Virus record (IMG/VR): IMGVR_UViG_3300010373_001146
Coordinates: 1 to 27,700 of that record
Source of the DNA: a virus
Direction: 5' to 3' (one strand)
DNA: 27,700 bases
How positions within the stretch are numbered: the first letter of the stretch is position 1; every line of letters begins with the position of its first letter. A program made the translations under genes and the position numbers. The notes below the pieces were generated by a model. It was given only the letters and a program-made list of their open reading frames with translations, was not told the origin of the DNA and did not search any database. Shown here piece by piece: positions 16,882 through 27,700 of the stretch.

Positions 16882-17784
16882 TCACTCCTTGCCCAAAAGC
16901 AGGTCAATCACCCAGCAGCCGCGCACATGCGTAGTTGCCACGCCACGACGCCAAACCATTCCCTTCCCAGGTGAGGCTTGTACTAATCCCCATCCTCGGC
17001 AGTGGTTCAGGATGTCGGCGTTCTCACAACCCGCCTCTTGCAGCGCATCGGCCAGTACCGGCATGTCCTCAAATCGCCGTTCCTCGTAGATGGCCTGGGC
17101 GATCTTGCGGATGAGGCCGTCGTTCAAGGTGAGCCAGTCGCTCCATTTGTCCTGTTTGCCATTCCCAAGGCAATCCGGACAGTAATGTTTGATGGGGACA
17201 TACAACCCATCCCCATCGTCAACTTGATGGGTTAACTTGCCACTTCCGTGGCATTTGTCACACTTTCCGTATCTCGTTATCGGGCGAAACGGGTTGCCGA
17301 AGATGTCTCGTAGGAGGGCGGCTTGAGTAGGCCGCATGTCTCTGAACATGCCATCAAGGGTAACATGGCGAGCGGCGTCTGCGGCATCTCGGACAGTGAC
17401 GACCCACGCTCCTCCTTCCGTCGTTCCACAGCCGGCTGTATACATCTCATCCTGCGTTGCCTCCCCATCCGCGTACCGTTCCGCCACTTCCACGGCTCGC
17501 TGGCTGCGATTTATGTGGCCAGTGCCTGAACAGGAGTAGCATTCTTGCCCCGCTGCCTGATGCCTCAGCGCATTAGACGGAATTATCCCGTAACCACGAC
17601 ACCGTTCGCACGGTACAACATCCACCAGTTTATTCCACACCTGCCGGCAACACGCGCACGCAAAGAGGCGTAATTGGCGTTCGCTGGCGTAGTACCCAGC
17701 CACGGTAGGGTTATCAGCGTCTAGATGAAACAGTCGCAGCATCGCTTGCGGGGCGTCACTCGTTAGCCACTCTCGCTCTATCAC
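16882..17784 (-). CDS. Gemmataceae paralogue 3 of 3, with two inserted zinc-ribbon motifs
   Basis: 300 residues from a GTG start at 17784. Family framework: EREWLTSDAPQAML, RQLRLFACACCRQVW, RAVEVAERYADGE, ALLRDIFGNPFRPIT (156-170), IAQAIYEERRFEDMPVLADA, CENADILNHCRG, and HVRGCWVIDLLLGKE at the end. Two DnaJ-type Cys segments interrupt it: C59/C62 with C82/C85, and C175/C178 with C202/C205, each of the form CxxCxGxG. They occur at different points of the framework from the insertion in paralogue 1. The start has AAGGAG (17791-17796 on the complement), formed by the Lys-Glu codons ending the upstream paralogue. Function is unknown; this family is large in Gemmata. Confidence 0.7.
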   Translation of the reverse strand: MIEREWLTSDAPQAMLRLFHLDADNPTVAGYYASERQLRLFACACCRQVWNKLVDVVPCERCRGYGIIPSNALRHQAAGQECYSCSGTGHINRSQRAVEVAERYADGEATQDEMYTAGCGTTEGGAWVVTVRDAADAARHVTLDGMFRDMRPTQAALLRDIFGNPFRPITRYGKCDKCHGSGKLTHQVDDGDGLYVPIKHYCPDCLGNGKQDKWSDWLTLNDGLIRKIAQAIYEERRFEDMPVLADALQEAGCENADILNHCRGWGLVQASPGKGMVWRRGVATTHVRGCWVIDLLLGKE

Positions 17785-17787
17785 TGT

Positions 17788-18393
17788 CTACTCCTTGCCA
17801 AGTAGTAGGTCCACAACCCAGCAACCCCGTACATGCAAGCCCTCACCTCGGCAGTGATTCAACATCTCCTCATTCTTGCAGCCTGCTTCTTCGAGTGCGT
17901 CCGCCAGTACCGGCATGTCCTCGAAGCGCCGTTCGTCGTAGATGGTCTGGGCGATCTTGCGAACGAGGCCATCGTGCCATCGTAGCCATTGACGCAAGCG
18001 CGAGTCCATGCAGTGAACGACGTTGCCGGGGTCGCCCCCTCTGGGCTTGGTCCAGCGCCAGCGCTCCTGCCGAAACACGTTGCCGAAGATGTCGCGTAGC
18101 AGAGCGGCACAGTCACCCCAAGAAATTGCCCAGTCACCAGCCTTGATGGAGTCAAACCAGAGCGGCAGGTATGATGCCGGTTTTTCTTGCCCCCTTTCCC
18201 AGCACGCGACCCGTTCCTCGACGTATGAACGGTGAGGGCGCACGCTGCGATAAACAGCACAGGCGAACCAACGCAACTTGCGGTCTGTGGAAGGGCGTTG
18301 TCCCCAAAGTGGATGCTCCAGGCTTGCTGGCCCCCTAATGAAGTGAAGCATCGCCTCCAGATCATCACTCGTTAGCCATTCTTGCTCCGTCAC
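17788..18393 (-). CDS. Gemmataceae paralogue 2 of 3, short form
   Basis: 201 residues from GTG 18393. It keeps the common framework: EQEWLTSDDLEAML, RKLRWFACAVYRSVRPH, CAALLRDIFGNVFRQE, LVRKIAQTIYDERRFEDMPV, LADALEEAGCKNEEML and HVRGCWVVDLLLGKE. The central ribbon insertions and the AVEVAERYADG helix are missing, and CACCR is reduced to CAVYR. Its ribosome-binding site (AAGGAG, complement of 18400-18405) is built from the last two sense codons of the preceding gene, leaving 6 bases to GTG, so it is translationally coupled. GC is visibly lower than in the head genes. Confidence 0.7.
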   Translation of the reverse strand: MTEQEWLTSDDLEAMLHFIRGPASLEHPLWGQRPSTDRKLRWFACAVYRSVRPHRSYVEERVACWERGQEKPASYLPLWFDSIKAGDWAISWGDCAALLRDIFGNVFRQERWRWTKPRGGDPGNVVHCMDSRLRQWLRWHDGLVRKIAQTIYDERRFEDMPVLADALEEAGCKNEEMLNHCRGEGLHVRGCWVVDLLLGKE

Positions 18394-18396
18394 TGT

Positions 18397-19101
18397 CTAC
18401 TCCTTGCCAAGTAATAGGTCCACAACCCAGCAGCCGCGCACATGCGGGCCGCGCAAGGGAATCCATTCCTTGCCATCACACACACCGCACGCCCAACGGT
18501 ACCCGCCGGCCTCCTCGCTGCATTGGAGTTCATGGTAGCCCTTCCCATAATTTAGAGGGCATCGCTCCAATTCCCGGCAGTGATTCAGCATCTCCTCATT
18601 CTTGCAGCCGGCTTCTTCCAAAGCATCTGCAAGTATGGGCATGTCCTCGAAGCGACGTTCGTCGTAAATAGTCTGGGCGATCTTGCGAACGAGGCCGTCG
18701 TTCAAGGTGAGCCAATCGCATACACAGCCACAGTCAAAACGAGTTCTGGGACCAACCCATGACGGACAATTCTTGCTATGCGGAAGCATCACCGGGCGAA
18801 ACGGGTTGCCGAAAATGTCGCGGAGCAAATTAGCAAACACGGAGTTTCTCTCTGGCGAGCCTGGGTCGCCACTTCTCAACGCAAGGGCCGCAGTGAGCGG
18901 CCAGTCGATCTCCTCCCGTTTATCTAATCGGTGCCATTTTTCCCACGGTGGCACAATGGCACACGCCAACAGCCGCAGCTTGCGGTCGGAAAGGATGACA
19001 CTTCCGCCCCCCATGCCTTCGGCGGTATTGGCGTCATTCCCACGGGCGAACGTAAGCATCGCTTGCGGGTCGTCGCTCGTCAGCCAGTCCTGCTCGGTCA
19101 T
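18397..19101 (-). CDS. Gemmataceae paralogue 1 of 3, C-terminal Cys insertion
   Basis: 234 residues from ATG 19101, chosen over an in-frame ATG at 19131 because GGGAGG lies five bases before it and the family start MTEQDWLTSDDPQAML begins there. Framework: RKLRLLACAIVPPWEKW, ANLLRDIFGNPFRPVMLP, a CVCDWLTLNDG segment, LVRKIAQTIYDERRFEDMPI, CKNEEMLNHCREL. Then comes an inserted Cys-rich stretch (CPLNYGKG, QCSEEAGG, WACGVCDGKEW) before the HVRGCWVVDLLLGKE end. It is first in the minus-strand operon. A putative -10 TACAAT lies 20 bases upstream. Confidence 0.7.
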   Translation of the reverse strand: MTEQDWLTSDDPQAMLTFARGNDANTAEGMGGGSVILSDRKLRLLACAIVPPWEKWHRLDKREEIDWPLTAALALRSGDPGSPERNSVFANLLRDIFGNPFRPVMLPHSKNCPSWVGPRTRFDCGCVCDWLTLNDGLVRKIAQTIYDERRFEDMPILADALEEAGCKNEEMLNHCRELERCPLNYGKGYHELQCSEEAGGYRWACGVCDGKEWIPLRGPHVRGCWVVDLLLGKE

Positions 19102-19120
19102 GCGTACCTCCCGTGCGACG

Positions 19121-19126
19121 ATTGTA
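19121..19126 (-). promoter_or_regulatory. Probable -10 box for the paralogue operon
   Basis: The complement of 19121-19126 reads TACAAT, 20 bases before ATG 19101. No good -35 is visible 17-18 bases upstream, so this is a partial promoter match. The 140-base gap between this operon and the plus-strand gene at 19242 holds no other clear signal. Confidence 0.35.
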
Positions 19127-19241
19127 CCCACAGTGTCCGGCCGTTCCCAGAGCAGCCGCGCCGAGTTTGCCTCCCCGCTTCCGCCTGGGTAATCTCGTGT
19201 CCCGCACCACCAGCGCCGGTCTCACGCGGGAACACACACGC

Positions 19242-20429: not shown

Positions 20430-21041
20430 ATGGACCATGTGGTTGTCGATGTGGAAATCCAGAAGACCATCGCCGAGACGCCCGGCGGCTGGAACGCCAC
20501 GGACCAGCTGGGCGTGGCGGTGTCCTGTCTCTGGGAATACCAAACGGCGCGGCTGCGCGTCTACGGCCCCGACGAGGTGCCGGCGCTGCGCGAGCGCCTG
20601 CTGCGGGCCGACCGCATCACCGGGTACAACATCTGGAAATTCGACCTGCCGGTCATCTGGGGCCTGTCGCAAGCGGAGTGGTTCGCCAAGACGGAAACCT
20701 TCGACCCCCACGCGGATTTGCGCGACCGGCTCCGCGCCAAGACGGACGATCTCCTGCGGCGCATCTGGAAGGCCCTGCGCCTCAACCCGGACAGCTTTTC
20801 GCCGCGCCATGGCGGCTGGGGCCTGGATGCCGTAGCGGCGGCCACCCTGGGCAGCGGCAAGATTGGTCACGGGGCCGAGGCGCCCCAGTGGTATCAGGCC
20901 GGCCTCATCCAGAAAGTCGCCAACTACTGCGCCGATGATGTGTGCTTGGAACGCGATCTGTGCGACTACCTGGAGCGCTACGGCCGCGTTGTCAACGGCG
21001 AGCGAATTCTCAGCGTGCCGCCCTGGGACGGCACGGCCTGA
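20430..21041 (+). CDS. DEDDy-type 3'-5' exonuclease-like protein
   Basis: 203 residues starting MDHVVVDVEIQKTIAE. The RNase-H-like exonuclease residues are all in place: motif I D7 and E9 in VVVDVE, motif II D72 in ITGYNIWKFDLPVI, and motif III Y166-x3-D170 in NYCADDVCLERDL, the DEDDy pattern. This matches predicted exonucleases related to the DnaQ proofreading group and RNase_H_2 proteins. The ATG at 20430 follows AAGGTGAG. Substrate, DNA or RNA, is not determined by sequence. As a phage gene it may act in DNA repair or recombination, but no polymerase or recombinase is nearby. Confidence 0.7.
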   Translation: MDHVVVDVEIQKTIAETPGGWNATDQLGVAVSCLWEYQTARLRVYGPDEVPALRERLLRADRITGYNIWKFDLPVIWGLSQAEWFAKTETFDPHADLRDRLRAKTDDLLRRIWKALRLNPDSFSPRHGGWGLDAVAAATLGSGKIGHGAEAPQWYQAGLIQKVANYCADDVCLERDLCDYLERYGRVVNGERILSVPPWDGTA

Positions 21042-21091: not shown

Positions 21092-21418
21092 ATGCTCGAC
21101 ACCTCCATTCACAACGTCCGCCCCCTGTCGGCGCGGCTGCTCGTGCGCCGCGCCCCGGCCCGGGGCGTCAGCAAGGGCGGCATCCTCATCCCCGACACGG
21201 CCAAGAAGCTCAATCAGAAGGGCGAGGTGCTGGCCGTCGGCCCCGGCAAGCTCAACGAGCAAACCGGCGCGCGCATCCCGCTGCCGGTGCAGGTGGGCGA
21301 CACCATCCTGTTCGGCAAGCACGCCGGTTTCTGGGGCGAGCTGGACGATCGGAACGAGGTCTATCTCGTGCAGTGGGACGATGTCCTGGCCGTGGTGGAC
21401 CCGAACGCGGTGCCGTAA
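21092..21418 (+). CDS. groES: GroES-like co-chaperonin
   Basis: 108 residues. Family landmarks: an opening NVRPLSARLLVRRAPARG with the conserved L/V-x-R, a mobile loop around SKGGILIPDTAKKLNQKGEV, the VLAVGPGKLNEQTGARIPLP turn, VGDTILFGKHAG matching the conserved VGD-x-V-x-F/Y-x-K-Y-x-G, and an end LVQWDDVLAVVD matching the usual EDDILAV. The mobile loop has the GGI(L/I)(I/L)P signature that binds GroEL. Lack of an adjacent groEL suggests it works with the host chaperonin, as T4 gp31 does for its capsid protein. It lies 50 bases after the exonuclease stop. Confidence 0.85.
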   Translation: MLDTSIHNVRPLSARLLVRRAPARGVSKGGILIPDTAKKLNQKGEVLAVGPGKLNEQTGARIPLPVQVGDTILFGKHAGFWGELDDRNEVYLVQWDDVLAVVDPNAVP

Positions 21419-21467: not shown

Positions 21468-22433
21468 ATGCGTAGCGACGTGCAACTCGTGACCGCCCCC
21501 GATGAACACCAGCGCTGTTGTGTCTGCACGGACGACAAGCAGCGCTGCGCCAACCCCAGCGCCTTCTGGGTGGGCACGGTGGGCGTCTGGGGCGATTCCA
21601 CCTACGTCTGCGCCGCCCACCTGCCCCTGGTGGAGCGGCCCGTCGATGTCGTTATCAGCCGCGACCGGGCCAGCGCCTGGCCCGTGCCCTTTGGAGGCGG
21701 TCTGCCACGCCCGTCAGCCACAACAACGTACCAGGATCGTACCAGTAGTCGAGAGCAAACCATGCCCCAGACGCTGCTGATTTTGTGCGGGCTGCCACGG
21801 TCAGGCAAAACCAGCCGCGCCCGCTGGCTGCACGAGCGCGAGGGCGTACCCATCGTTTGCCCCGACGCCATCCGCTTGGCCCTGCACGGCCAGCGCTACC
21901 AGCCCAGCGCGGAGCCGCTCGTGTGGCAAATCGCCCAGTGGATGGTCCGCAGCCTCTTTCACGCCGGCCATCCGGCCGTGCTGGTCGATGCCACCCATAC
22001 CACACGCCAGCGCACAGACCCTGCGCGCCGCGGAACAGACGCGCCTGGAAGTGCGCGGTGCTGGTCGATGCCACCCATACCACACGCCAGCGCCGCGACT
22101 TCTGGAAGGACGCCAGCTGGCGGCGCGTGTTCGTCGTCCTCGACACCTCCAAGGAGGAATGTCTGCGCCGCGCCCAGGCCGAGGGCGACACGGAGATCGT
22201 CGCGGTCATCGAACGCATGGCGGCGCAGTGGGAGCCGCTGGCGGCGGAGGAGATCGACCCATGAGCGCCGCAGCGGGCAACTTCTTTTACGCGCAGGTAC
22301 TCCTGCGCCATTTGGCTTTCTGTCGGGCGCACGCCCTGCTGCGGGCTGGCGAGCCGTGCCTGACTTACGACCTCGACCTGTTCGTCGAGCCGGTGTGGTT
22401 CGGCTACCTGAACTGCTACCTCGTGGACCATGA
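21468..22433 (+). CDS. As-read ORF: zinc-finger-like protein running into kinase, then out of frame
   Basis: The frame opens at ATG 21468 with GGAGAA upstream. The first 60 residues contain a Cys/His cluster (RCCVCTDDKQRCANPSAFWV and YVCAAHLPLV) that looks like a small zinc-binding domain. After residue 75 the sequence is low quality (GGGLPRPSATTTYQDRTS) and covers the second copy of the 20-bp repeat. It then reads in frame into the kinase that starts at ATG 21762, and after the 80-bp insertion continues out of frame to 22433. The real zinc-finger gene probably ended somewhere before 21727, its stop having been lost or shifted. Function is unknown. Confidence 0.4.
   Translation: MRSDVQLVTAPDEHQRCCVCTDDKQRCANPSAFWVGTVGVWGDSTYVCAAHLPLVERPVDVVISRDRASAWPVPFGGGLPRPSATTTYQDRTSSREQTMPQTLLILCGLPRSGKTSRARWLHEREGVPIVCPDAIRLALHGQRYQPSAEPLVWQIAQWMVRSLFHAGHPAVLVDATHTTRQRTDPARRGTDAPGSARCWSMPPIPHASAATSGRTPAGGACSSSSTPPRRNVCAAPRPRATRRSSRSSNAWRRSGSRWRRRRSTHERRSGQLLLRAGTPAPFGFLSGARPAAGWRAVPDLRPRPVRRAGVVRLPELLPRGP
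21727..21746 (+). repeat. 20-bp direct repeat, copy 2
   Basis: Identical to 21434-21453. It ends 15 bases before the kinase ATG at 21762, nearly the same distance as copy 1 from ATG 21468, so both may be leaders or control sites. Confidence 0.85.
21762..22264 (+). pseudogene. P-loop nucleic-acid/small-molecule kinase, disrupted by an 80-bp insertion
   Basis: Begins MPQTLLILCGLPRSGKTSRA with Walker A GLPRSGKT (9-16), then CPDAIRLALHGQRY and AVLVDATHTTRQR (kinase Walker B-like DATHxTxxR). At this point a 36-base sequence (21978-22013) recurs at 22058-22093, 80 bases later. The shift is not a multiple of three. In the new frame the protein resumes RDFWKDASWRRVFVVLDTS, KEECLRRAQAEGDTEIVAVI and stops at 22262-22264. 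Removing 80 bases gives an uninterrupted 140-residue kinase of the AAA_33/polynucleotide-kinase type. As it stands the gene cannot make the full protein. An assembly error is an alternative to a true mutation. Confidence 0.6.
21978..22093 (+). repeat. 36-bp direct repeat (two copies, 80-bp period) in kinase gene
   Basis: Two perfect 36-base copies, 21978-22013 and 22058-22093, with a 44-base spacer. The repeat encodes the kinase segment VLVDATHTTRQR, but in different frames. Recombination between the copies would delete exactly 80 bases and restore the kinase reading frame. Confidence 0.85.
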
Positions 22434-24166: not shown

Positions 24167-27100
24167 ATGGCCAGCGACGACGCGAAAAAACAAGAACTGC
24201 TGCAAGTCCTCAGCAAGAACTACCGGCCGGCCGTGCTCGGCGCGCCCTCGGCCCTGTGGAACCTGTCGGCGACGCTGGGCTTCACGCTGGCCCAGGTCGA
24301 ACCCATGCGCCGCGACCCGCAGGTGCGGCTGTGCCTGCGCTACCTGGTGACGCCGCTGCAAACGGCCGAGTTCGAGCCGGTCGAGGCCACGGACAAGGAA
24401 GTCGCCGCCTTCGTCACGCGGCAGTTTCGCCGCTTCTTCCAGCGCAGCCTGGGCGTGGCCCTGGAGATGTACCCCTACGGCCGCGCCGCGGCCGAAGTGC
24501 TGTACCGCGACACGCCGCGCGGCCTCGAGTTCGACGACCTCAAGTACCTGGCGCCGCGCGACGCCGCGCTGTACACGATTGACGGCCAGGCCGCCTTCGT
24601 CCGCCTGAGCGGTTCCGGGACGAGCCTGTCCGGCTACGTCGGCGCCAGCCGCGACGCCGCCCAGAGCGGCCCGCTCGACCTGTGGCTGGCCCAGGAAGGC
24701 CGCCCGGCCAAGGGCTTCTGGATCACCCACGACCCGCTCTACGACCCCTACTACGGCAAGTCCGCCCTGCTGGCCGCCTGGCTGCCCTGGCGCCTGAAGA
24801 ACCTGCCGACCGGCGGCGCCATGGACAGCCTGGCCAAGTGGTTCTACCGCCACGGCTACAAGGGCTACATCGGCCGCCACCCCAACGCCCTCTACCAGGA
24901 TTCGGCCGAGGACACGCCCGCGGACGCGCAGGCGCTCATGCGGCAGATGCTGGAATCCCTCAAGACGGGCGCCGACATCGTGCTCGACAACTCGCGCGAC
25001 GAGAAGGGCGAGTACCAGTGGAGCATCGATAGCTACGGCGAGATCAACGGCGACGCCACCGGCCTGACGGCCTACGTCGATTTTCTCGACGTGCAGATCC
25101 AGCGCGGCATCGGCATTCCCGACGGCATCATCACCGACAGCGGCAGCCAGGGCTACGCGGGCCGCAAGATTCCCGAAGACGCCTTCTATGCCGGCGCCGA
25201 AATGGACTTCAACCGCATCGTCGAGACCTTCGACGAGCAGGTGTGCCGGCCGCTGGTGCAGCTGCGCTGGGGCCGGGCGGCCGACTACGCCATCAAGCCC
25301 AAACCGCTCGTGCCCATTCGCCAGCAGGCGGCGCAGCAGTCGATGCAAGGCGCGGCGCAGCCGGGGGCGGGCGGCGCCGGCGGCAGCGAGGAGAGCGCCC
25401 TGGCCGGCGTGGCGCAGGCCAGCGGCCAGGGCAACGCGCGTCCCGGCGGCGTCAGCGCCCTGGGACACAACCGGCTGGGCGAAGACGAGGAGGACGGCGT
25501 CTACCACGGCCAGGAGCCTCCCGGCGCCGGCTGGGTGGAGATCGCCCCCGGACCGCGCGGCGGCAAGCGCTGGAAGCGTCCAGAGCCAAGAGCCAAGAGC
25601 CAAGAGCCAGAAGGTCCGGGGCCCGGCACGGGACGCTCGCCTCTCGTCTCCCGGCTCCTGCGTTCCGGCGCGGCGGCGCAGACCACGGCGCGCGACGCGG
25701 CGGCACGCGTGGGGGGCGCGGTGTGGAAGAAGTTGTCGCCCAAAGCGCAGGCGCGGCTGACGCGGACCTGGAAGCTGGCGAAAGCTGTCGAGCACACGGT
25801 CATGGTTGGCTTTCGGAAGACGGAAGCGATCGCCCGCGAGGCGGGTCGGGCGCGCGGCCTGTCCGGCCCCCAGGTGGCGCGGCTGGGCCGCGTGCTGGCC
25901 ACGGCGGACCTGGTGCTGTCCTGGGCGGTCAACTTCCCGGCCGTGACGGCGGCCACGGGCAACCCGCTGCTGGGCAAGCTGTCGAGTTGGGTGCCGGCGG
26001 CGAGCCTGGCCTACATCGCCTTTTCCGGAGCCAGGAACCCCTTCGCCACGGCGCGGGCGGCGTGGACGGTGCTGAGCAGTCGAGAGCGAATAGCCCAGAG
26101 TCCAGAGCCAAAGCGCCGGCTTTCCGGCTCTCGGCTCTCGGATCTCGGCTCTCGGCTGGATCGGCTGGTCCAGGCGATCGCCCAGCACGGCGCGGACGAC
26201 TGGTGGCAGGCGCTCCTGTACGCGGCGCTCGATCAGTGCCGGGGCGGCATGGGCGACGCGCTGGCGAAGGCTGACGCGGCCTACCGGCGCTGTCCGGCAC
26301 CGCCGGGCCAGTCCCAGAAGCTGTCGGCCGGTCCGCACCGCTACGGCACCACCCAGTTCAACCTGCCCCCGACGCTGGCCCAGAAGGTACGCCGCCTGGC
26401 GCTACGCATTCCCGACGCGGACCTGGCCGGCGACGGCCGTGAGGACGAGCCGCATGTGACATGCAAATACGGACTCCATAAGCCGGTGACGCTGAATAAG
26501 ATCAGCAGTCTGATCAAAGGCTTCGGCCCCGTGCCCCTGAAGCTCGGCAAGCTATCCGTCTTTCCGGCCACGGACGCGGGCGGTCACGACGTGCTCAAGA
26601 TCGAGGTCATCTCGCCGCGCCTGCGCCGTCTCAACAAGCTCCTGTCGGACAACCTGCCGCACACGGACAGCCATTCCGTCTACCAGCCCCACATTACCCT
26701 TGCCTACCTGCGTCCGGGCCTGGGCAGGAAACACGCCGGCGAGGGCTCGCATCCCTTGCAGGGGCGATCCTTTCAGGCCGACGCGCTGACCTGCTCGCCG
26801 GTCCAGGGCGAGCCGGGCATCGTGAAACTCGGCAAGTTCCGCCGGGGCGAGCGCGATGCCCAGATGGGATACCAGCGCATGGCCAGCGCCACGCTTCCCT
26901 CCTGGCAGCCTTATCAGGGGCCCCACGGAGGTCAAGGCTGGCGTAACTTGCGCACCGGCGAGATTCGCTATCAGGACAAGCCGCCCGAAGAACACAGCGC
27001 CGTGCCGGATCCGGGGAAAGACACGCCCGCGCACGCCAACAACAAGGCGCCCTGGCACATGACCGCCGCCGAGTTCGCCAAGTCGGGCATTCAGGCGTTC

Positions 27101-27700
27101 CGGACCAGCCAGGGCAGCACCTACGTCTACAGCCGCGGCCAGACGCTGCGCATCAAGACGCCGCACGTCGGCCACGAGGTCAAGGACGTGGGCCTCAAAC
27201 AGGGCAGCGCCGTCACCTATTTCACGGACGAACAGGGTGCGAGAGAGATCGGCATGTGGAACAGCTTGCAGGGGGGCACCGGCAAGCGCTTGATCGTTCA
27301 GGGCGACGAGATCCTTTTAACCAGCCTCAATCCGCGCACCGGCCAGCGCGGTCTGGATGGCAAGGTCAGGATTCAGAGCACGGCGCCGCGGGAAGGTTTA
27401 TCGCCCGTTGAACTCTGGGATCCGTCCTCGCAGGGGAAAGGCTGGTTCCGGGCCAATCATCCCGGTAACGCCATCACCGCGATCGGGAAACCGGACCGGG
27501 ACATTCACAGGCAATTTGTGGCCGCGGCCCTGGCGGCTGGCAAGCAGATCCCGAGCGAGGTGCTGCGCGAGTATCCCGAGTTGGCTCGGCAAGCTGGGGC
27601 AAAACATCTCTCCTCTCAGCGCCTGGAGGCCGGCCGCGCCTCGTGGGTGCCCTGGGTCGTCAAGTCTGGCCCCCACAAGGGCCGAGCGGCCTGGAAGAAC
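24167..27700 (+). CDS. Portal protein (DUF935-like) fused to a 2H phosphoesterase and further domains (partial)
   Basis: Open without a stop from ATG 24167 to the window end, 1178 codons. Residues 1-375 resemble DUF935 portal proteins: VEPMRRDPQVRLCLRYLVTP, YPYGRAAAEVLY, DPYYGKSALLAAWLPWRLKN, and DVQIQRGIGIPDGIITDSGS near 305-325. Then come an Ala/Gly-rich linker (380-460), GPRGGKRW at 462, and a helical, partly hydrophobic region (510-710). Next is a 2H-phosphoesterase-like domain with its two H-x-T motifs, HVT at 763-765 and HIT at 842-844. GPHGGQGW follows at 918, then unrecognised sequence including AAALAAGKQIPSEVLREYPE, and a third motif GPHKGRAAW at 1168. Ordinary portals have 400-550 residues, so this is a polyprotein or a fusion with cargo domains. 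Two 28-base heptamer repeats lie inside it. Confidence 0.7.
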   Translation, partial: MASDDAKKQELLQVLSKNYRPAVLGAPSALWNLSATLGFTLAQVEPMRRDPQVRLCLRYLVTPLQTAEFEPVEATDKEVAAFVTRQFRRFFQRSLGVALEMYPYGRAAAEVLYRDTPRGLEFDDLKYLAPRDAALYTIDGQAAFVRLSGSGTSLSGYVGASRDAAQSGPLDLWLAQEGRPAKGFWITHDPLYDPYYGKSALLAAWLPWRLKNLPTGGAMDSLAKWFYRHGYKGYIGRHPNALYQDSAEDTPADAQALMRQMLESLKTGADIVLDNSRDEKGEYQWSIDSYGEINGDATGLTAYVDFLDVQIQRGIGIPDGIITDSGSQGYAGRKIPEDAFYAGAEMDFNRIVETFDEQVCRPLVQLRWGRAADYAIKPKPLVPIRQQAAQQSMQGAAQPGAGGAGGSEESALAGVAQASGQGNARPGGVSALGHNRLGEDEEDGVYHGQEPPGAGWVEIAPGPRGGKRWKRPEPRAKSQEPEGPGPGTGRSPLVSRLLRSGAAAQTTARDAAARVGGAVWKKLSPKAQARLTRTWKLAKAVEHTVMVGFRKTEAIAREAGRARGLSGPQVARLGRVLATADLVLSWAVNFPAVTAATGNPLLGKLSSWVPAASLAYIAFSGARNPFATARAAWTVLSSRERIAQSPEPKRRLSGSRLSDLGSRLDRLVQAIAQHGADDWWQALLYAALDQCRGGMGDALAKADAAYRRCPAPPGQSQKLSAGPHRYGTTQFNLPPTLAQKVRRLALRIPDADLAGDGREDEPHVTCKYGLHKPVTLNKISSLIKGFGPVPLKLGKLSVFPATDAGGHDVLKIEVISPRLRRLNKLLSDNLPHTDSHSVYQPHITLAYLRPGLGRKHAGEGSHPLQGRSFQADALTCSPVQGEPGIVKLGKFRRGERDAQMGYQRMASATLPSWQPYQGPHGGQGWRNLRTGEIRYQDKPPEEHSAVPDPGKDTPAHANNKAPWHMTAAEFAKSGIQAFRTSQGSTYVYSRGQTLRIKTPHVGHEVKDVGLKQGSAVTYFTDEQGAREIGMWNSLQGGTGKRLIVQGDEILLTSLNPRTGQRGLDGKVRIQSTAPREGLSPVELWDPSSQGKGWFRANHPGNAITAIGKPDRDIHRQFVAAALAAGKQIPSEVLREYPELARQAGAKHLSSQRLEAGRASWVPWVVKSGPHKGRAAWKN
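25583..25610 (+). repeat. Heptamer repeat 1 inside the portal polyprotein
   Basis: Three GAGCCAA units (25583-25603) and one GAGCCAG (25604-25610). The unit length of 7 is not a multiple of 3, so a change in unit number would shift the reading frame. It encodes PEPRAKSQEPEG in a linker. Confidence 0.85.
26126..26153 (-). repeat. Heptamer repeat 2, opposite orientation
   Basis: GGCTCTC at 26126-26132, 26133-26139 and 26147-26153, with GGATCTC at 26140-26146; on the complement this is GAGAGCC, related to repeat 1 but inverted. A degenerate GAGAGCG/CCAGAGCC stretch precedes it at 26082-26110. It encodes a Ser/Arg/Leu-rich linker. Confidence 0.8.

What the first reader, a model, noticed from the sequence alone, without database searches (positions are those of the whole stretch)
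24167..27700. Portal protein continues into a 2H phosphoesterase and more, in one uninterrupted frame
The frame has no stop over 1178 codons. After a DUF935-like portal part (about 1-375) it contains a helical region and a pair of H-x-T motifs (HVT 763-765, HIT 842-844) about 79 residues apart, the signature of LigT-like 2H phosphoesterases, which act on 2',3'-cyclic or 2'-5' RNA ends. Phage polyproteins fusing head proteins to effector domains are known for MuF-type proteins. A portal fused to a 2H domain would place an RNA- or nucleotide-active enzyme inside or on the virion. I do not know of a described example.
Basis: partly seen in the sequence, partly recalled or inferred. Interest (0 to 1): 0.8.

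Follow-up and report, generated by a model that had tools for sequence, protein, structure and literature searches.

The report
Phage portal fused to signal-cutting enzyme
A phage contig encodes a DNA-entry (portal) protein that runs straight on into an enzyme of a family known to cut RNA ends or antiviral nucleotide signals; such fusions were already reported, but here the enzyme's family is closest to a known anti-immune phage enzyme, and it is followed by a short, apparently undescribed module that marks clusters of virion-cargo genes in other viruses.

Summary
Confirmed: window 24167-27700 is one open frame of 1178 codons, still open at the contig end. It encodes a Mu-type portal (PF06074, residues 45-373, E 9e-13), a helical segment and a 2H phosphoesterase (PF13563, E 2.5e-6). 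Both HxT motifs are invariant in 63 of 63 aligned relatives, and the predicted 2H fold (pLDDT 92) matches 2H structures.

I found them with three portal families, five more with this portal family.

(1) The family profile's best solved match by sequence is the anti-CBASS nuclease Acb1 (E 7e-9), suggesting a virion-carried enzyme that destroys defence nucleotides. (2) Right after the 2H domain lies a 28-residue module, WxPYxGPRGGxGWxNxxTGEVRYQxxxPG, without a Pfam model. It recurs up to 16 times per contig in tailed-virus contigs, downstream of the portal in all 9 contigs with a PF06074 hit and upstream of MuF in 11 of 12 with a MuF hit, often heading effector domains. Its predicted fold resembles eukaryotic WW domains; sequence comparison does not support homology.

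Packaging, substrate and module function are inferred, not shown.

The parts
24167..27700 (+). Whole open frame (1178 codons, 3' end cut by the contig): portal, helical segment, 2H domain, module, further segment
24299..25285 (+). Mu-type portal domain, residues 45-373
   Evidence: PF06074, E 8.7e-13; similarity to portal parts of L024, L026, L037, L104, L129
25532..25579 (+). Possible remnant of the module, residues 456-471 (GPRGGKRW); not significant
   Evidence: 1.2 bits with the module HMM
25664..26296 (+).
   Evidence: no relatives at E below 0.1 in the module loci
26342..26812 (+). 2H phosphoesterase domain, residues about 726-882
   Evidence: PF13563, PHROG 755, model and fold matches
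26453..26461 (+). First catalytic motif HVT, residues 763-765
   Evidence: invariant H and T in 63 of 63
26690..26698 (+). Second catalytic motif HIT, residues 842-844
   Evidence: invariant H and T in 63 of 63, but part of the search pattern
26903..26986 (+). GPRGG module, residues 913-940: WQPYQGPHGGQGWRNLRTGEIRYQDKPP
   Evidence: 51.4 bits, E 3.7e-18 with the module HMM (it was a seed sequence of that HMM); 41 other copies in alignment A1
26999..27631 (+). Segment after the module, residues 945-1155, unknown; probably the next cargo domain
   Evidence: no Pfam or PHROG match
27644..27700 (+). Possible start of another module cut by the contig end, residues 1160-1178 (WVPWVVKSGPHKGRAAWKN); not confirmed
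   Evidence: regular expression only; not reported by the module HMM

Best explanation
This is the portal protein of a tailed phage that carries enzymatic cargo on its C-terminus. Portal subunits form the twelve-fold DNA-entry ring, and in known portals the C-terminal end faces the inside of the head (established knowledge), so up to 12 copies of the 2H enzyme and whatever follows would be enclosed in the virion and could enter the cell with the DNA. The 2H domain keeps both HxT motifs, and its family is closest in sequence, among solved structures, to Acb1. The most likely job is therefore to hydrolyse defence nucleotides (CBASS cyclic oligonucleotides or similar signals) at the start of infection, before phage genes are expressed. 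The module that follows acts as a header of the next cargo segment, as a docking domain for head assembly or as a spacer beside a processing site. Shown: fusion, motifs, predicted 2H fold, the family's relation to Acb1, recurrence and gene position of the module. Inferred: packaging, delivery, substrate, module function.
For: Domain matches; invariant HxT/HxT; model pLDDT 92; Foldseek hits are 2H enzymes, among them Acb1; the family profile's best PDB match is Acb1, E 6.9e-9; relatives L053 and L115 exceed the Pfam Acb1 cut-off; Acb1 uses an HxT/HxT tetrad (PMC9117128); independent portal-2H fusions with three portal families; published prediction that such fusions are packaged; module copies lie downstream of the portal and mostly upstream of MuF.
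Against: The window's own 2H domain does not match the Pfam Acb1 model, and its best fold match is an RNA 2',3'-cyclic phosphodiesterase, not Acb1. Base-stacking and lid residues of Acb1 were not compared. No proteomics shows that the fusion is in virions; how a folded enzyme on a portal ring would be released is unknown.
Confidence: 0.45

Rival explanations
1. The virion-carried 2H domain acts on RNA: it opens 2',3'-cyclic phosphate ends left by host anticodon nucleases or toxins, or trims host RNA like Usb1, rather than cutting signal nucleotides.
For: Best fold match is a bacterial CPDase (5h7e), and Usb1 and LigT are among the top matches; PHROG name RNA ligase; PMC5512222 favours an RNase or a 2'-5' oligoadenylate role. 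The contig also has an ORF with a polynucleotide-kinase-like P-loop match.
Against: By sequence the family is closer to Acb1 than to LigT or CPDase; PMC5512222 never saw the polyvalent 2H versions next to RNA ligases; no RNA ligase was seen in this contig.
Confidence: 0.3
2. The 2H domain has a structural or assembly role (for instance binding packaged nucleic acid) and its catalysis is not used on the host.
For: Fused to a structural ring; no activity has been shown.
Against: Both HxT motifs are invariant in all 63 sequences, which points to selection for catalysis.
Confidence: 0.1
3. The module is only a flexible linker or a protease cleavage site without a fold of its own.
For: It sits between domains and near the N-terminus of separate ORFs; head maturation proteases are common in such clusters.
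Against: About 28 residues with invariant W4 and G9 and nearly invariant G12, G13, G15, W16, Y26, P31 and a confident small beta-sheet model suggest a folded unit rather than a short cleavage site.
Confidence: 0.35
4. The fusion is an assembly or sequencing artefact.
For: Metagenomic contig, open at the 3' end.
Against: The same order in one frame in independent contigs, with an alignment running through 2H and module to L129.
Confidence: 0.02

Closest known systems
2H domains fused to portal or MuF in phage polyvalent proteins (PMC5512222; PMC9503650)
   Same: Portal and 2H in one polypeptide; predicted to be packaged and injected
   Different: Those texts, as read here, do not mention the module or Acb1 for these fusions; this protein adds a module and a further segment after the 2H domain
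Acb1, anti-CBASS nuclease of phages (PMC9117128; PDB 9q2g, 7t26)
   Same: 2H fold and HxT/HxT motifs; closest solved relative of the family by sequence
   Different: Acb1 as described is a stand-alone protein; the window domain does not match the Pfam Acb1 model, and its substrate is unknown
LigT, CPDase and Usb1 (2H phosphoesterases)
   Same: Fold
   Different: Cellular enzymes, not fused to virion proteins; weaker by sequence than Acb1
Eukaryotic WW domains
   Same: Predicted fold of the module: all 50 Foldseek matches shown hold WW domains; similar spacing of Trp, Asn and Pro
   Different: No sequence support; by spacing, the groove Tyr is Gly here
Cargo ORFs of haloviruses HCTV-1 and HCTV-5
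   Same: A related half-module (NRWTNTETGEHRYQ) in ORFs around portal, MuF and head protease
   Different: First half degenerate; no portal-2H fusion seen there

Membership tests
Mu-type portal (PF06074) | Match above the curated cut-off | tested here: met
   48.7 bits against 23.9, residues 45-373
Mu-type portal (PF06074) | Dodecameric ring in the virion | not testable with these tools
   needs structure or proteomics
2H phosphoesterase superfamily | Match above the curated cut-off of a 2H family | tested here: met
   PF13563, 28.1 bits against 27.0
2H phosphoesterase superfamily | Two HxT/S motifs | tested here: met
   HVT 763-765, HIT 842-844; invariant in 63 of 63
2H phosphoesterase superfamily | Bilobal 2H fold | tested here: met
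   model pLDDT 91.9; Foldseek probability 1.00 to CPDase, Acb1, Usb1, LigT
2H phosphoesterase superfamily | Both motifs facing one pocket | not tested
   no coordinates were examined; implied only by the fold match
Acb1 (PF23474) | Match above the Pfam cut-off | tested here: not met
   no match for the window protein at E up to 1; relatives L053 and L115 do exceed it
Acb1 (PF23474) | Cleavage of cyclic oligonucleotides | not testable with these tools
   needs an enzyme assay
Acb1 (PF23474) | Aromatic base-stacking residues, lid and E141 equivalent | not tested
   listed in PMC9117128, not aligned here
WW domain (PF00397), for the module | Sequence match to the family | tested here: not met
   no Pfam match, hhalign 0.8%, no WW hit in the PDB profile search, scores like shuffled copies
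WW domain (PF00397), for the module | Small three-stranded antiparallel sheet | tested here: inconclusive
   model pLDDT 83, two strands plus a short third; all 50 listed Foldseek hits hold WW domains but best E is 0.085
WW domain (PF00397), for the module | Binding of proline-rich peptides | not testable with these tools
   needs a binding assay; the groove Tyr position is Gly by spacing
Phage polyvalent proteins | Several effector domains in one polypeptide in a virion-gene context | tested here: inconclusive
   portal plus 2H plus an unknown segment; the C-terminus is missing

The most novel reading that the evidence does not exclude
A previously undescribed 28-residue module with a WW-like fold is a common header of virion-carried effector domains in bacterial and archaeal tailed viruses: portal, then a run of module-plus-effector cassettes, then MuF. 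It would dock each cargo to the assembling head, so that effectors can be exchanged between unrelated phages like cartridges. In this phage it follows a portal-borne, Acb1-related enzyme that disarms nucleotide-signalling immunity on entry.
Probability: 0.3. Interest if true: 0.85.

Novelty: new variant of a known kind. Interest (0 to 1): 0.6.

Why it matters
Portal-2H fusions are known, but their substrate is open. The family relation to Acb1 makes it testable with one enzyme assay, and would mean that anti-CBASS enzymes can arrive with the DNA instead of being made after infection. The module gives a sequence handle for finding virion-carried effectors, many of which had no Pfam match in the contigs examined, and raises the question of how such cargo is loaded into heads.

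Tried and rejected
Scans with the whole protein or the portal part by back-translated peptides found no relatives; the protein is too divergent for that method. tblastn in phages matched only the 2H part in the rows listed, in plasmids nothing. WW homology by sequence was tested four ways and not supported. Closure of the contig into a circle, which would continue the ORF, was rejected: no terminal overlap, and the frame at position 1 stops after 23 codons. Pattern hits that lack the GPRGG half (L010, L011, L014, L022, L023, L028, L032) were treated as chance, likewise L134. The contigs of portal-2H fusions L079, L080, L119 carry no module, so the module is not needed for such fusions. Not done: planctomycete host genomes (no genome handle was available), pocket geometry on coordinates, independent (non-motif) sampling of contigs for the gene-order statistics.

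Full report
Check of the observation. The frame 24167-27700 (+) has no stop and runs off the record, a 27.7-kb virus contig. Pfam gives Portal_Mu (PF06074) at residues 45-373, E 8.7e-13, and 2_5_RNA_ligase2 (PF13563) at 734-849, E 2.5e-6; PHROG 755 'RNA ligase' agrees. Head genes elsewhere in the contig (a terminase match just below its curated cut-off, decoration protein, E-type major capsid protein, Mu gp36) identify a tailed phage. A planctomycete host is suggested only by recalled resemblance of some ORFs to Gemmata repeats; I did not test it.

The 2H domain. A pattern from five 2H sequences (A2) brought in 80 viral loci. In an alignment of 63 sequences (A3) both His and both Thr of the HxT motifs are invariant; because the second motif was in the search pattern, only the first is an unbiased test. 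The AlphaFold2 model of residues 713-902 has pLDDT 91.9 and pTM 0.85. Foldseek against the PDB gives 2H enzymes at the top: CPDase 5h7e E 5e-7, a Burkholderia phage phosphodiesterase 9q2g 6e-6 (named Acb1), human Usb1, LigT, and FBB1 Acb1 1e-4, all probability 1.00. By sequence the family profile matches Acb1 best (9q2g E 6.9e-9, 9q2y 1.1e-6; 7t26 4.2e-5). Relatives L053 and L115 exceed the Pfam Acb1 cut-off; the window protein does not match that model. PMC9117128 gives the Acb1 active site as an HxT/HxT tetrad. So it is a member of the 2H superfamily that may work like Acb1; I do not file it as Acb1.

The fusion is recurrent and known. Portal and 2H share one ORF in G001/L104 (1505 aa), G016/L129 (1000 aa), L079, L080 and L119 with the Mu-type portal, in L082, L085, L090 and L096 with PF04860, and in L055 (with near-identical L056-L060) with a PF05136-like portal at 32.6 bits against a cut-off of 32.9. 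In 56 of the 80 loci the 2H domain lies in an ORF longer than 300 aa (some contigs are near-duplicates). In jumbo-phage record LR756511 a separate 2H ORF lies between ORFs that look by eye like a large terminase and a portal. Iyer et al. 2017 (PMC5512222, section 20) and a 2022 survey (PMC9503650, section 3.4.5) already report 2H fused to MuF or portal, the second predicting packaging and injection to counter nucleotide signalling.

A module next to the 2H domain. Residues 913-940, WQPYQGPHGGQGWRNLRTGEIRYQDKPP, recur elsewhere. One pattern scan found 6 viral stretches, a second 30. An HMM gave 46 distinct copies; no Pfam model matches the sequences tried. In 20 contigs searched whole there are up to 16 copies. 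These contigs were chosen for the motif, so its presence there is not a result; what it sits beside is. Loci recruited by the motif alone contain portal-module fusions (L024, L037, L020), a MuF-module fusion (L026), ART-PolyVal (L019, L020, L027), and topoisomerase IB, ADP-ribosyltransferase exoenzyme, weak GNAT and methyltransferase matches. Many other module ORFs have no Pfam match.

Gene order. In all 9 contigs with a PF06074 hit, all 24 copies lie on the portal's strand, 0.4-13.6 kb downstream. In 11 of 12 contigs with a PF04233 hit all copies lie upstream of MuF on its strand; G014, with MuF and module in one ORF, is the exception. A random-shift simulation gives 3e-9 for the portal result, but this is rough: G005 and G011 look near-identical (so do G002 and G003), head genes are normally on one strand, and the 15-kb limit was chosen after seeing the data. 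In 28 single-copy ORFs not cut at the N-terminus, the module lies in the first 200 residues in 18 against 11.4 expected (p 0.004), again with some near-duplicates.

Structure of the module. The model from 42 sequences (A1) has pLDDT 83. All 50 Foldseek hits shown are WW domains or proteins that hold one; best E 0.085, probability up to 0.92. Few solved chains of this size have such a sheet, so this is similarity of fold, not proof of kinship. By spacing from the first Trp, the groove Tyr of WW domains is Gly here, so canonical proline-peptide binding is doubtful. PMC12331936 describes a WW-like motif in a bacterial enzyme and says that WW domains had been characterised only in eukaryotes.

Distribution and literature. 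Half-modules occur in Haloarcula viruses HCTV-1 and HCTV-5 in ORFs around portal, MuF and head protease. In host genomes the module is rare: 3 of 244 haloarchaeal genomes. Searches for WW domains in phage or polyvalent contexts and for the string GPRGG found no description of it; the library holds only open-licence papers, so this is weak evidence of novelty. PHROG 24083 (unknown function) covers one copy in L017, so such sequences are already in public families.

Mechanism. Most likely the C-terminal cargo of the portal ring is enclosed in the head and reaches the cell with the DNA, and the 2H enzyme destroys defence nucleotides before phage genes are on. The module would head each cargo segment, for docking or spacing. 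Fusion, motifs, predicted fold, family relation and gene order are shown; packaging, delivery, substrate and module function are inferred.

Noticed in passing
window 21092-21418 (+): A GroES-like co-chaperonin (Cpn10, PF00166, E 3.6e-21) is encoded in the phage contig.
   Followed up: no
window 21975-22093: A 39-base direct repeat (97%, spacing 80) lies inside an ORF with an AAA_33/polynucleotide-kinase-like match; the frame after it looks shifted, so the gene may be broken or misassembled.
   Followed up: partly
window 16882-19131 (-): Three similar adjacent ORFs on the minus strand begin with (T/R)EQ-WLTSDD-like sequence; they look like tandem paralogues of a planctomycete type, from memory.
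   Followed up: no
window 20430-21041 (+): Weak match to a PolB-type 3'-5' exonuclease (PF10108, E 0.0019, below cut-off).
   Followed up: no
L129 2099-5098: The portal-2H-module ORF of G016 also has a weak match to head maturation protease (PHROG 595, E 2.5e-4) at residues 716-977.
   Followed up: no
L129 5050-6333 and 11235-12410: Ribosome modulation factor-like (RMF) segments directly precede the module in two ORFs of G016, one followed by topoisomerase IB.
   Followed up: no
L136-L138 (haloarchaeal genomes): Small ORFs (124-177 aa) carry a module in host genomes; in the two read as L133 and L135 it is near the C-terminal end.
   Followed up: partly
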